In this document: positions 25,423 to 49,090 of the stretch, piece after piece
How positions within the stretch are numbered: the stretch's first letter is position 1
Layout: the number at the start of each line of letters is the position of its first letter
IMG/VR virus record: IMGVR_UViG_3300021438_000010
Location: 34,622 to 98,621 of that record
DNA: 64,000 nucleotides
Strand: one strand, 5' to 3'
From: a virus
Made by a program: the position numbers and the translations under genes
The notes under the pieces: generated by a model
Told to the model about the DNA's origin: nothing
Seen by the model: the letters and a program-made list of their open reading frames with translations, nothing else
Database searches by the model: none

Positions 25423-26466
25423 CTATGTAGTTTTATCAAAATGAACTCTGTTTACTCTAATGAATTCTGCACACTTTGGCAAATCTTTTAAACTATCAGA
25501 ACCGACATAAGCACACGCACTCCTTATACCACCTAGTATATCATCAACAATATTTAATACATTACCTTTATAGTCAACTATTTTAATACGACCTTCACTA
25601 GCCCTGTAGTTTTTGACTCCACCATATTTTTCTTGTGCTGCATGAGAACTCATTCCGTAGAACGTCAGAACTCGTTTGTCTCCAATGTAAGACCATTCAC
25701 CATCGCACTGTTCTGATCCAGCTATCATTCCTCCAAGCATAACAAAATCTGCACCGGCAGCAAATGCCTTGACAACATCTGCTGGCGTTCTACATCCACC
25801 ATCAGCACAAATCAATCCTAGATGTTTGTTTTTAGCTTTTAGTCCATGAGCGGCATGAGAACATTCGTCAATCGCAGATAACTGTGGATATCCTATGCCA
25901 GTTTTTAATCTAGTTGTACATGCTGACCCCGGCCCAATACCAACCTTAACGATATCTACTCCACCGTGCAAAATCAACTCATGCACCATTTCTGGAGTAC
26001 ATACATTTCCAGCCATTATGATAGGTCTTGTGCCAAACTTATTTCTTATTTTAGCACAATGCTCTACAAATTGATCTGTATACCCATTGGCAACATCAAT
26101 ACATATGTTGGGTATGTCTTCTATCCTGTCAACTATTTTTCTTAGTTTATCAATCTCATGATCACTAATTCCCATACTATACCAAAATGTATTTAGGTTT
26201 TGAATATTTTCAACATAATCTTCTACTTCGTAGTGCTTGTGTAGGCATGTGATACAATTTCTCTCTGATAAAGATTCCGCCATCTTAAATGTGCCGGTAG
26301 TATCCATATTTGCTGCCATTATAGGAACTCCACTCCACTCCATTGAAGAGTGAAAGAATTTAAATGTTCTATTGACATCAACCAAGGACCGTGAAGCGGC
26401 TCGGGATCGCTGTGGAACGAGTAAGACATCATCAAAATCCAGTTTTTCATCGCTACGAATATTCAT
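25423..26466 (-). CDS. guaC: GMP reductase
   Basis: I start it at the ATG (26466) giving MNIRSDEKLDFDDVLLVPQR; upstream in-frame codons run through a terminator. 347 residues, the same length as E. coli GuaC. The active-site Cys is in GIGPGSACTTRLKTGIGYPQ. LGLICADGGCRTPADVVKAF, FVMLGGMIAG, LTFYGMSSHAAQEKYGG and DILGGIRSACAYVG all follow GuaC rather than IMP dehydrogenase, and there is no CBS insertion. It converts GMP to IMP with NADPH, shifting purines from G towards A, which would suit an AT-rich phage genome. Confidence 0.92.
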   Translation of the reverse strand: MNIRSDEKLDFDDVLLVPQRSRAASRSLVDVNRTFKFFHSSMEWSGVPIMAANMDTTGTFKMAESLSERNCITCLHKHYEVEDYVENIQNLNTFWYSMGISDHEIDKLRKIVDRIEDIPNICIDVANGYTDQFVEHCAKIRNKFGTRPIIMAGNVCTPEMVHELILHGGVDIVKVGIGPGSACTTRLKTGIGYPQLSAIDECSHAAHGLKAKNKHLGLICADGGCRTPADVVKAFAAGADFVMLGGMIAGSEQCDGEWSYIGDKRVLTFYGMSSHAAQEKYGGVKNYRASEGRIKIVDYKGNVLNIVDDILGGIRSACAYVGSDSLKDLPKCAEFIRVNRVHFDKTT

Positions 26467-26490
26467 TTTTGCCCCTATTTTATTTATACA

Positions 26491-26525
26491 TAAAAACAAA
26501 CCGGAAGGGAATTGCTTCCCCTCCG
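26491..26525 (-). terminator. Rho-independent terminator after rIIB
   Basis: Minus-strand hairpin CCGGAGGGGAAG paired with a CCCTTCCGG arm, followed by TTTGTTTTTA. It lies 17 bp after the rIIB stop and separates the rII unit from guaC. Confidence 0.9.
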
Positions 26526-26542
26526 GTCTGCCCACAACACAC

Positions 26543-27409
26543 TCAAACACTAACTGTTTGGAGTCTCTTTGAAAGAACCTTATTAAGTCTTTCCATTTTT
26601 GCTGTAACTTCAACAACCCACTCGCGGTTACGCTTCTTACGATTGAAGTGATTAACATCGTCACTGGTGAGATGAACGACCTTATCAAAAATTGTATTAA
26701 ATTCAGATACAACTTCATATCGACAAGTGCGAAGCTTTTGAAACTTATGATCAGATGGAACGCTAACAACATCGCGTGGATTAACCTTGCAAATCATTAG
26801 ACGGTTTCCACCATCATTGTCGCTATCAAAATCAATTCCACCATAACTCTTAGCATAGTCAATAGCACCAACATGTAGACCCTTGCCGCAACCATTATCA
26901 CGATTATTATCTACTGTATTGCGAGGAACTTGGCAAATAGAACCAACCTTGTTGTCAAAATTACCAGAGTAAATATCCTTATAATCTTCACGAACAGCCT
27001 TGTATGCCAAGAAACATCCATCACCAGTAATTGGCATATTCTTGTTTTCCATAAAATCAAACAGTTCAATTACTGCATGGTCGGATGGATTTTGACTAAG
27101 ATTATCAAGGAAGTTAAGCATAGGCTCAAAGGGAAATCCCTGCTTAATCATATCAAGGATAGTACCAGTAAACATATCTGGCATCTTAATCCCATCCCAT
27201 GTGAGCGATCCATCATTACAGTTAACATATCCTTCACAGAATGCGTTAACATGAGAAATGATATCGTAACATGCTTCAAAATACTCGACGTTATTATTCT
27301 TAAGGTGAGTAATAAGCTTATCATAATTTGGATGTGACTTATTAAATGTATAAGTCTGCTCACCCACAATCGCCGTTACTCCACCATCATTAGCAATAAT
27401 GTACTTCAT
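26543..27409 (-). CDS. rIIB: rIIB-like protein
   Basis: 288 residues. It matches the T4 rIIB layout: an N-terminal small domain, then PMLNFLDNLSQNPSDHAVIE followed by LFDFMENKNMPITGDGCFLA, then YKAVREDYKDIYSG, a diagnostic FLAYKxVREDY segment, and GKGLHVGAIDYAKSYGG. rIIB acts with rIIA at the membrane, and in T4 protects against exclusion systems. It lies directly behind rIIA and uses C-ending codons more than most of the window. Confidence 0.88.
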   Translation of the reverse strand: MKYIIANDGGVTAIVGEQTYTFNKSHPNYDKLITHLKNNNVEYFEACYDIISHVNAFCEGYVNCNDGSLTWDGIKMPDMFTGTILDMIKQGFPFEPMLNFLDNLSQNPSDHAVIELFDFMENKNMPITGDGCFLAYKAVREDYKDIYSGNFDNKVGSICQVPRNTVDNNRDNGCGKGLHVGAIDYAKSYGGIDFDSDNDGGNRLMICKVNPRDVVSVPSDHKFQKLRTCRYEVVSEFNTIFDKVVHLTSDDVNHFNRKKRNREWVVEVTAKMERLNKVLSKRLQTVSV

Positions 27410-34993: not shown

Positions 34994-35080
34994 CGGAGCA
35001 AATAGGATTCGAACCTATGGACCAAATTAATGATCGTCGGTTTAGTAAACCGGTGCATTAGACCGCTCTGCCATTGCTCC
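34994..35080 (-). tRNA. tRNA-Ser with anticodon ACU
   Basis: 87 nt. Acceptor GGAGCAA pairs with TTGCTCC, discriminator G73 as in serine tRNAs. The T arm is ATAGG-TTCGAAT-CCTAT. A long variable arm (GATC with GGTC) marks a class II tRNA. The anticodon arm is CCGGT-TTACTAA-ACCGA, with C-A at the top pair, so the anticodon is ACU for AGU codons. A34 in place of the usual G (GCU) is unusual. No CCA is encoded. Its first base overlaps the stop codon of the HNH gene upstream. Confidence 0.88.
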
Positions 35081-35457
35081 TATACATTATCAAAATTTAT
35101 TAATTGAGTTTCAAGTTCTTCTATTGAAATTTTATTTTGTAAGTTTTCAGATGTTCTACTATTAGAAGAGTGGGTATGTTCCATATGACAATTAGAACAC
35201 ATTACTCTGCATTTTTTAATTTCATCTATCAATTCTTGTGGGCTATGCCTTTTAGAATATAACCTATACATTCCACCAGCACAGGTTCTTTTTGAACATC
35301 CATTCTTAGTAATTTCTGATTTTTCGTATTCCGGTAAATGATCAAAACATAGTGCTGATGGGTGCTTGTTATATCCACAAATACAACACCCAACCGATAC
35401 TTTATAGGCATCGACTAATTCGTGTCTTCTTTTTATTGTATCACTACTAGTTGCCAT
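35080..35457 (-). CDS. HNH-family endonuclease next to tRNA-Ser
   Basis: 125 residues from the ATG at 35457, near the upstream stop. The zinc/HNH core is GCCICGYNKHPSALCFDHLP, then KKCRVMCSNCHMEHTH: CxxCG, then FDH in place of the HH of classic HNH, then CxNCH. This sub-family is common as freestanding phage homing enzymes. Its stop codon shares one base with the tRNA 5' end. Confidence 0.8.
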   Translation of the reverse strand: MATSSDTIKRRHELVDAYKVSVGCCICGYNKHPSALCFDHLPEYEKSEITKNGCSKRTCAGGMYRLYSKRHSPQELIDEIKKCRVMCSNCHMEHTHSSNSRTSENLQNKISIEELETQLINFDNV

Positions 35458-35998
35458 TGTCAAGTCTGTCGCATACATTCTTACAAAAATTTATTACATC
35501 ATCGTCAGAAAATGTATTCTTAGCATAGTTGTATATTAAAGCAACAAATCTTACATTACTTTCAATATATCCTATAGAGCTATCTATTCTATCTAATGAT
35601 GCTTGATATGGATATTTTTTGATATCATTGTTTGAATGAGTTCTTAAAGTCAATTTTTGGTTTGTAAATGGACATATTCCATTTTGTTCATTCCAGAGTC
35701 TTTTTAAGTATTCACAATCAACATTATATTCATGATTTCTTTTTTTTGAATTCCTAATTACAACTTTCATATACCATCGAAAATTTGAGTATTCATCTGG
35801 CTGTCTGGTATATTTAGCTAGTTTAAAATTATTATGAAATTGGGATACACGTTGTATATTATCTTTATTTTTGCCAGCACATTTTAGATCGCAATAAAAT
35901 TTGTTTTTTCCTTTTTTCGTTTGTCTTTTGATTTCTGATGCTAATTTTGATACTTCTTTGCCGCATGAAGCACAAGTTATTGTAATTGTAGTTTTCAT
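35447..35998 (-). CDS. HNH-type endonuclease between tRNA-Ser and tmRNA
   Basis: 183 residues from the ATG at 35998 after AAGGAG. The N-terminus has a Cys pair (TCASCGKEV) and YCDLKCAGK, a zinc ribbon. The nuclease region has NGICPFTNQKL, then ASLDRIDSSIGYIESNVRFV and YNYAKNTFSD, in the arrangement of plant/phage DRIDs-type HNH enzymes. It is preceded by GTGTATAAC 19-27 bp upstream. Confidence 0.82.
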   Translation of the reverse strand: MKTTITITCASCGKEVSKLASEIKRQTKKGKNKFYCDLKCAGKNKDNIQRVSQFHNNFKLAKYTRQPDEYSNFRWYMKVVIRNSKKRNHEYNVDCEYLKRLWNEQNGICPFTNQKLTLRTHSNNDIKKYPYQASLDRIDSSIGYIESNVRFVALIYNYAKNTFSDDDVINFCKNVCDRLDNGN

Positions 35999-36016
35999 AT
36001 ATTTCTCCTTCAATGT

Positions 36017-36025
36017 GTTATACAC
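36017..36025 (-). promoter_or_regulatory. Candidate late-type promoter motif between tmRNA and HNH genes
   Basis: GTGTATAAC preceded by a T-run on the minus strand, 19 bp before the HNH ATG and 26 bp after the tmRNA 3' end. No TTGACA is seen. Confidence 0.5.
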
Positions 36026-36050
36026 AAAAATGGAGACGGGTTGTTTTTAG

Positions 36051-36402
36051 TGGAGGCGGGCAGAGTCGAACTGCCGTCCAGAATAATTTCAATATAAACC
36101 TCTACATCCTTAGTTAATTGTTATCGCACAACTAACAAAACTAACAGAGTTATCTGTGTCAGATTGAGTACAATCATCATTCCTATTTATGTTTGGTAGG
36201 ACTACCATATCCGATTATCGGAGTCAGCATGATTGGGCAATACGGTTCATGCTACCGCACTCTTACCTAACTAGGTCAGGCAGCGAGAGCGAGAGTCGAA
36301 ACTTCGCCAATTAACATTTCAATCGACTTTTATACTGGCCGGTCGATTAACCAGTGGATGCCATCTATATCTACGTTTACCTGTCGAAACCTTTACGCCC
36401 CC
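36051..36402 (-). ncRNA. ssrA: Transfer-messenger RNA (tmRNA)
   Basis: 352 nt. The 5' end GGGGGCGTAAAGGTTTCGAC and the 3' end GGCAGTTCGACTCTGCC then CGCCTCCA are hallmarks of tmRNA. The acceptor stem (GGGGGCG with CGCCTCC) has G3-U70, the alanine identity pair. The tag frame reads GGC GAA GTT TCG ACT CTC GCT CTC GCT GCC TGA, giving GEVSTLALAA, which ends in the LALAA degradation signal. CCA is not encoded. The 5' end abuts the stop codon of the thioredoxin gene, so both are co-transcribed. It would rescue stalled ribosomes and tag their products. Confidence 0.95.
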
Positions 36403-36744
36403 TTATTTTAGGAAGTTTGTTAAATCATTCGGTCCTTGATAACCAATCTTTCTTCGTAACTCTTTTCCGCCCTCGTAAATCACAAAAGCGGGGATCGTCT
36501 TTATATTGTACCCCTCAACGATGTCTTTGTCAACATCAAAATCTACATCTACGATGGTATAATTTTTTACAATCTCTGATAATTGTGGATCATTTTGTAT
36601 ATTGTTTTTAGCTATTTGACAGTATTTACACCAATCGGCTGAAAATATGATTAGTACTTTTTCGTTAGTATTGTCAAAAGCAAAAACTGACGCGATAGAT
36701 ATCAAACACGAAATCAAAAGGACAGAAACTAGTGTATTTCTCAT
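36403..36744 (-). CDS. Exported thioredoxin-like protein
   Basis: 113 residues from the ATG at 36744 after GGAGG. A signal peptide (LVSVLLISCLISIASVFAF) is followed by a thioredoxin fold: VLIIFSADWCKYCQIAK (active-site CKYC), then DFDVDKDIVEGYNIKTIPAF with the cis-Pro motif TIPA. It would reduce or exchange disulfides in the periplasm. Its stop codon is the triplet directly before tmRNA. Confidence 0.9.
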   Translation of the reverse strand: MRNTLVSVLLISCLISIASVFAFDNTNEKVLIIFSADWCKYCQIAKNNIQNDPQLSEIVKNYTIVDVDFDVDKDIVEGYNIKTIPAFVIYEGGKELRRKIGYQGPNDLTNFLK

Positions 36745-36786
36745 GCTAAAACCCTCCAAATGGCTAATAATATATTCTACCTTGAA

Positions 36787-48560: not shown

Positions 48561-48592
48561 AAATTAAAACTTAAAACGTTTTGGTGTATTGT

Positions 48593-48621
48593 ATTATAGC
48601 GTCTACCTTATGGAATGTCAA
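48593..48621 (-). promoter_or_regulatory. Sigma70-type promoter of tRNA-Arg
   Basis: TTGACA, 17-bp spacer TTCCATAAGGTAGACGC, TATAAT on the minus strand. It overlaps the ribosome-binding region of the divergently oriented HNH gene, so the two face apart from the same stretch. Confidence 0.88.
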
Positions 48622-48631
48622 GGAGTTAATC

Positions 48632-49090
48632 GTGAATCTCAAACATCATTATACAAAAGAAGTATTATCAAAAATTTGTGCGGAATCTTATAGTTATAGA
48701 CAATGTTTAGAAAAAATGAATATAGTCCCAGCAGGGGGTAACTATGCTTGTCTTAAAAAACATATTGAATTGCATAATATTGACATCTCTCATTTTACAT
48801 TACAAGGATGGAATAAAGGAAAAAAATTTGGTCCAAAACGCCCAATAAAAGATTATCTTTCTAATAAAGCTGGAATACAGAGTTGGAAACTGAAACGTAG
48901 GCTCATAAAAGAAAATATTCTTGAACATAAATGCAATAATTGTAAACAAAAAACTTGGTTTAATCAACTTATTCCAATTGAATTACATCATAAAGATGGT
49001 AATCATTTGAATAATGAACTGTCAAATTTAGAGTTATTGTGTCCTAATTGTCATGCTTTAACTGATAACTATCGTGCTAAAAATAAATAG
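48632..49090 (+). CDS. HNH endonuclease on the plus strand between two tRNAs
   Basis: 152 residues starting at GTG (48632), chosen because AAGGAG lies 6 bases upstream; an earlier ATG at 48581 has no ribosome site and overlaps the tRNA promoter. The N-half is a basic DNA-binding region (YSYRQCLEKMNIVPAGGNYA, then GWNKGKKFGPKRPIKDYL). The nuclease is HKCNNCKQKTW, IELHHKDGNHLNNELSNLEL and CPNCHALTDNY. Its stop shares 3 bp with the 3' end of the intron-bearing tRNA. Confidence 0.86.
   Translation: MNLKHHYTKEVLSKICAESYSYRQCLEKMNIVPAGGNYACLKKHIELHNIDISHFTLQGWNKGKKFGPKRPIKDYLSNKAGIQSWKLKRRLIKENILEHKCNNCKQKTWFNQLIPIELHHKDGNHLNNELSNLELLCPNCHALTDNYRAKNK

What the first reader, a model, noticed from the sequence alone, without database searches (positions are those of the whole stretch)
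36051..36402. Phage-encoded tmRNA with tag GEVSTLALAA
The window carries a complete one-piece tmRNA with G3-U70 and a tag ending in LALAA. tmRNA genes are rare in phages. Because host tmRNA rescues stalled ribosomes, a phage copy may sustain translation late in infection, alter the tag to steer products to other proteases, or replace a degraded host pool. It is co-transcribed with an exported thioredoxin and lies in a tRNA/HNH island, so it may be mobile.
Basis: partly seen in the sequence, partly recalled or inferred. Interest (0 to 1): 0.75.

Follow-up and report, generated by a model that had tools for sequence, protein, structure and literature searches.

The report
Phage-lineage tmRNA with HNH insertion
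This uncultured phage carries a complete ribosome-rescue RNA (tmRNA) that belongs to a phage-only family seen in about a hundred viral contigs, and in several of these phages a mobile nuclease gene has inserted exactly at the end of the tmRNA gene and swapped part of it.

Summary
A one-piece tmRNA lies at 36402..36048 (-): Rfam RF00023, 109.6 bits, G3-U70, tag GEVSTLALAA*. ARAGORN misses it. It is not an isolated host capture. A 19-mer from its pseudoknot region hits 97 IMG/VR stretches; these give 101 full tmRNAs (66 distinct). All 66 have an open tag in the same frame, and 64 end in AA. In about 85,000 prokaryote genomes a looser form of that motif marks only two tmRNAs, both probably phage contigs in MAG bins. 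The carriers are large uncultured phages that share a divergent PolIII-alpha-like polymerase. None found so far encodes SmpB. Pairing is supported by strong covariation. Most likely the RNA does ordinary trans-translation with host SmpB, keeping ribosomes cycling during infection; its tag looks like a ClpXP-type degron. Redirection to other proteases is not supported. 'Mobile' is half right: the HNH genes are the inserts. In three filled/empty comparisons HNH cassettes sit exactly at the tmRNA 3' end, and HNH+ alleles carry a replaced but still paired T-arm (66% of differences in the last 45 nt versus 11% in controls). Phage tmRNAs are known; the phage-only clade and the HNH docking appear new. 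No expression or host evidence exists.

The parts
36048..36402 (-). one-piece tmRNA gene (nt 1 at 36402; discriminator A at 36051; genomic CTA instead of CCA)
   Evidence: Rfam RF00023 109.6 bits; covariation
36276..36308 (-). tag reading frame GEVSTLALAA + TGA, resume codon GGC
   Evidence: translation and alignment of 66 relatives, all open in this frame
36321..36355 (-). pseudoknot 1 upstream of the tag (ACTGG/CCAGT and AATCGAC/GTCGATT)
   Evidence: 100% and 94% of cells paired, 3 of 5 and 7 of 7 pairs with two-sided changes
36226..36257 (-). pseudoknot 2 (CGGT/ACCG and AGCATGA/TCATGCT)
   Evidence: 95.5% and 86% of cells paired with two-sided changes
36209..36227 (-). signature TGACTCCGATAATCGGATA, used to find the phage tmRNA family
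   Evidence: 97 viral stretches; only 2 tmRNAs in genome contigs with a looser form
36059..36075 (-). T-arm (GGCAG/CTGCC)
   Evidence: 100% paired in relatives, all five pairs with two-sided changes; replaced in HNH+ relatives
36403..36759 (-). thioredoxin with N-terminal hydrophobic segment, stop codon adjacent to tmRNA nt 1
   Evidence: Pfam PF00085 5.7e-13; same linkage in relatives
35447..35998 (-). HNH endonuclease ORF (ATG start, 183 aa), part of the insert at the tmRNA 3' end
   Evidence: PHROG 3322 endonuclease 5e-18; filled/empty comparison
36004..36036 (-). hairpin pairing the HNH ribosome-binding site (GGAGA) with TCTCC, with TGTGTATAA in the loop
   Evidence: similar design in 5 HNH leaders
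35080..35478 (-). second HNH ORF in the same insert
   Evidence: PHROG 2255 HNH endonuclease 2.5e-15
35081..36045 (-). inserted HNH segment; the HNH-less relative L003 has about 14 nt here
   Evidence: blastn filled/empty
34994..35080 (-). tRNA-Ser, anticodon ACT, directly after tmRNA in most HNH-less close relatives
   Evidence: ARAGORN and Rfam

Best explanation
It is a functional phage tmRNA. The Trx-tmRNA transcript is cut at the tmRNA 5' end (presumably by RNase P), host enzymes trim it and add CCA, host AlaRS charges it through G3-U70, and host SmpB and EF-Tu deliver it to ribosomes stalled on broken or truncated messages. The ribosome resumes on the phage tag and terminates at its stop; the product ends in ...LALAA, a C-terminus that host ClpXP-type proteases would be expected to degrade. 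The benefit is sustained ribosome recycling during phage production. The tmRNA is an established gene of a large phage lineage, exchanged among its members, and its 3' end is a docking site for HNH cassettes that bring a recoded T-arm. Shown: sequence, structure, covariation, tag frame, family, insertion sites. Inferred: expression, charging, tagging, benefit, and HNH cleavage.
For: Covariance model match. Covariation over 39 distinct relatives and G-U in 38 of 38. 66 of 66 distinct tags open in one frame, 8-10 aa, 64 ending in AA, despite an in-frame 3-nt length change. 97 viral stretches; 26 of 34 sampled records share the polymerase at 43-89% identity. No SmpB in the 40 records searched, so host SmpB is needed. 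The 66 form one clade apart from 43 bacterial tmRNAs, while Cellulophaga phage Calle_1 tmRNA groups with Bacteroidota.
Against: No expression, charging or tagging data, and no cultured member. Clade support is only 0.74, and bacterial sampling lacked cyanobacteria, alphaproteobacteria, actinobacteria and planctomycetes. Records are fragments, so SmpB absence is not proven. A few relatives have weak T-arms or T-loops (L173, L205), so some copies may be decaying.
Confidence: 0.7

Rival explanations
1. The phage tmRNA mainly serves to tag and destroy proteins (host or aborted) to recycle amino acids or remodel the cell early, as proposed for methylophage Melnitz, rather than to keep ribosomes cycling.
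For: Tags keep a degradable ..AA end in 64 of 66; the idea is published as a hypothesis (PMC9004378).
Against: tmRNA acts only on stalled ribosomes, so selective host targeting has no obvious basis; rescue and tagging are coupled and cannot be separated by sequence.
Confidence: 0.12
2. It is a decoy that titrates SmpB or blocks host trans-translation, as suggested for the TLD-only tmRNA of mycobacteriophage DS6A.
For: No phage SmpB found, so it competes for host SmpB; DS6A precedent (PMC4131195).
Against: Full-length RNA with conserved tag frame, pseudoknots and G3-U70; a decoy would not need them.
Confidence: 0.06
3. It persists mainly because linked HNH homing endonucleases drive it through phage populations, with little benefit to the phage (compare SegB and the T4 tRNA region).
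For: HNH cassettes exactly at the 3' end with T-arm replacement; tmRNA and polymerase identities poorly correlated.
Against: HNH of this family lies beside only a minority of the tmRNAs, while covariation and tag constraint are strong everywhere.
Confidence: 0.1
4. Recent capture of a host ssrA, or a decaying relic.
For: Such capture is seen elsewhere: Cellulophaga phage Calle_1 tmRNA groups with Bacteroidota.
Against: No bacterial donor found; signature restricted to viral contigs plus two MAG contigs that probably are viral; no broken tags.
Confidence: 0.02

Closest known systems
Bacterial one-piece tmRNA (ssrA, Rfam RF00023)
   Same: Acceptor with G3-U70, T-arm, long helix, pseudoknots flanking a tag that ends in ALAA; full-length model match.
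   Different: Lower score than most bacterial tmRNAs searched here (109.6 against about 105-208 bits); own tree clade; CCA not encoded; no SmpB gene found in the same records.
Other phage tmRNAs (Mycobacterium Bxz1 group, Bacillus phage G, Streptomyces Daubenski, Cellulophaga Calle_1, methylophage Melnitz)
   Same: tmRNA gene in a phage genome (PMC4131195, PMC9004378).
   Different: Melnitz is two-piece and alphaproteobacterium-like; Calle_1 groups with Bacteroidota and Daubenski falls among bacteria. blastn finds no phage record with similarity beyond the conserved 3' end.
T4-type free-standing homing endonucleases (SegB; mobE of phage Aeh1)
   Same: Small nuclease gene next to a tRNA/RNA gene or between genes, ribosome-binding-site hairpin with a promoter-like loop, co-conversion of flanks (PMC2988022).
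   Different: HNH of the endonuclease VII type, docked at the exact 3' end of tmRNA with T-arm replacement; cleavage not shown.
Group I introns (some with LAGLIDADG nucleases) and genomic islands in tmRNA genes
   Same: The tmRNA T-loop or 3' end is the target (PMC11915505).
   Different: Here no intron and no integrase; a free-standing HNH cassette in a phage tmRNA.

Membership tests
tmRNA (RF00023, one-piece) | Full-length covariance model match | tested here: met
   109.6 bits, model 1-374
tmRNA (RF00023, one-piece) | G3-U70 alanine identity pair | tested here: met
   38 of 38 aligned genes with letters there, window included
tmRNA (RF00023, one-piece) | Tag frame after pseudoknot 1, ending in a stop, Ala-Ala end | tested here: met
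   66 of 66 open, 64 end AA
tmRNA (RF00023, one-piece) | Paired acceptor, T-arm and pseudoknots | tested here: met
   82 pairs, 91.7% canonical cells, covariation above all shuffles and slides
tmRNA (RF00023, one-piece) | SmpB partner | tested here: inconclusive
   none in 40 phage records, fragments; host SmpB assumed
tmRNA (RF00023, one-piece) | Charging, ribosome rescue, tagging | not testable with these tools
   needs experiment
Free-standing homing endonuclease | HNH/endonuclease VII-type nuclease, no intron | tested here: met
   PHROG 3322, 3118, 1035
Free-standing homing endonuclease | Filled and empty alleles at one site | tested here: met
   three filled/empty comparisons
Free-standing homing endonuclease | Co-conversion of flanking sequence | tested here: met
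   66% against 11% of differences in the last 45 nt; carried by two main events, L189 and L009; not seen for window against L002
Free-standing homing endonuclease | Cleaves the empty allele | not testable with these tools
   needs experiment

The most novel reading that the evidence does not exclude
Phages possess their own long-lived tmRNA lineage, and its 3' end is the homing site of an HNH endonuclease that protects its cassette by carrying a recoded but still base-paired T-arm, so that a homing nuclease both parasitises and spreads a ribosome-rescue RNA.
Probability: 0.4. Interest if true: 0.7.

Novelty: new variant of a known kind. Interest (0 to 1): 0.55.

Why it matters
It turns one odd phage tmRNA into a family with about a hundred members, showing that a phage lineage has kept and shaped its own ribosome-rescue RNA while leaving SmpB to the host. 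That makes the open question of why phages carry tmRNA testable with defined alleles. The HNH cassettes add a natural experiment: T-arms swapped while pairing is kept. It also shows that ARAGORN-based surveys undercount phage tmRNAs: ARAGORN reported 42 of the 66 distinct genes, and 7 of those with a wrong tag.

Tried and rejected
Placing the phage among T4-likes: NrdA and RIIA suggested it, but the polymerase is PolIII-alpha-like with at most about 33% identity to phage records, and the gp23 search had no positive control. Host from tag: rejected, because tags vary within the lineage. Host from genome scans: first pattern gave nothing; the second gave only two tmRNAs, in a SAR202 MAG and a Flavobacteriales MAG, each with its own ordinary tmRNA and with the phage polymerase on another contig, so the host stays unknown. 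The CCTCCAC copy upstream of HNH looked like a displaced tmRNA end, but it pairs with the HNH ribosome-binding site in the leaders, so I read it as anti-SD; only L201 has a convincing displaced end (CCTCCACT after the HNH stop).

Full report
CHECK. Rfam finds a complete tmRNA at 36402..36048 on the minus strand, 109.6 bits. The gene has GGGGGCG/CGCCTCC with G3-U70, and the tag GGC GAA GTT TCG ACT CTC GCT CTC GCT GCC TGA = GEVSTLALAA*. ARAGORN does not report it. The window is bases 34622-98621 of a 98,621-base IMG/VR record.

CLOSE RELATIVES. The thioredoxin upstream brought in nine close viral contigs (37-167 kb); all nine carry the tmRNA close downstream. Two have the same tag, GEVSTLALAA; the others read GETRFALAA (and L009 by sequence), a change that includes a 3-nt length difference in frame.

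FAMILY. A 19-mer from the pseudoknot region hits 97 viral stretches. A profile search recovers 101 full genes, 66 distinct (a few of the 101 are the same contig fetched twice). All 66 tags are open in the same frame with 8-10 residues; 64 end in AA. On 39 distinct aligned genes, 82 named pairs including three pseudoknots are 91.7% canonical, covariation score 0.491 against 0.186 +/- 0.006 in shuffles and at most 0.093 when slid; the third acceptor pair is G-U in 38 of 38.

PHAGE RESTRICTION. A looser motif hits 18 stretches in 84,980 prokaryote genomes; only two are tmRNAs. Both MAGs have an ordinary tmRNA on another contig and also contain the phage polymerase. The SAR202 contig encodes an RIIA-like protein. 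In a tree with 43 bacterial tmRNAs the 66 viral ones form one group (support 0.74), whereas Cellulophaga phage Calle_1 groups with Bacteroidota. The motif was chosen from the phage, so divergent bacterial relatives could be missed, and several phyla were not sampled.

THE PHAGES. 26 of 34 sampled records encode the same polymerase at 43-89% identity to the window record's (the window record itself counted); no phage record in the collection comes close. SmpB was not found in any of the 40 records searched. tmRNA and polymerase identity to the window are only weakly related (rho 0.35, p 0.09), which suggests exchange of tmRNA or polymerase among these phages.

NEIGHBOURS. The thioredoxin stop codon touches tmRNA nucleotide 1. 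The linkage recurs with Trx of 36-62% identity, but L004 has some 690 nt between them. In most HNH-less close relatives tRNA-Ser(ACT) follows tmRNA after 15-35 nt.

HNH DOCKING. HNH ORFs of one family start about 50-75 nt after the tmRNA in five distinct loci (window, L009/L076, L189, L201/L204, L218). Filled/empty alignments place the insert at the tmRNA 3' end in L076 against L034, window against L003, and L201 against L145. In L201 the octamer CCTCCACT, matching the tmRNA end, follows the HNH stop codon. In pairs with at most 25 differences, HNH+/HNH- pairs have 88 of 134 differences in the last 45 nt, HNH-/HNH- pairs 126 of 1103. L189 and L151 are identical except for 10 changes, all in that stretch. 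The pairs are not independent and reflect mainly two events; the window itself shows no T-arm change against L002, so in the window the insertion is shown but the replacement is not. T-stem pairing is intact in all aligned genes with letters there. The HNH leaders fold into hairpins that cover the ribosome-binding site with TGTATAA-like loops (z -1.4 to -6.1), the design known from T4-type homing endonucleases (PMC2988022).

MECHANISM. The conserved parts are those of a working alanyl-tmRNA, so I read it as ordinary trans-translation with host SmpB. Benefit during infection is inferred. In T4 infection host SsrA remains stable while tRNAs are degraded (PMC9697503), which fits a need for rescue but not necessarily for replacement.

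PRIOR ART. Phage tmRNAs are known (PMC4131195; PMC9004378; PMC7162821). I found no report of a phage-only clade or of HNH docking at tmRNA in the open-access library searched; subscription papers are not covered.

Noticed in passing
49356-49088 (-): tRNA-Leu(UAA) split by a 196-nt group I intron (49322-49127) after anticodon position 34, the site I recall from cyanobacterial and plastid tRNA-Leu; the tRNA has a short variable loop. An ORF with an HNH-like motif lies beside it at 48581-49090 (+).
   Followed up: partly
34994-35080 (-): tRNA-Ser with the unusual anticodon ACT, kept in relatives.
   Followed up: no
L143 9900-11531 and 6817-8385 (record bases about 26.8-31.5 kb): PolIII-alpha-like DNA polymerase split into two ORFs about 1.5 kb apart.
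   Followed up: partly
25423-26772 (-): IMP dehydrogenase-like protein, 1.3e-65 to PF00478, a possible auxiliary metabolic gene.
   Followed up: no
L001, L152, L171 and others: ARAGORN reports only 42 of 66 distinct family tmRNAs, 7 of them with a wrong tag, so ARAGORN-based phage surveys undercount.
   Followed up: yes
L002 against L003: Nearly identical tmRNAs without HNH that differ by a fully compensated T-stem swap, GGCAG/CTGCC against CGAG/CTCG-type pairing.
   Followed up: partly
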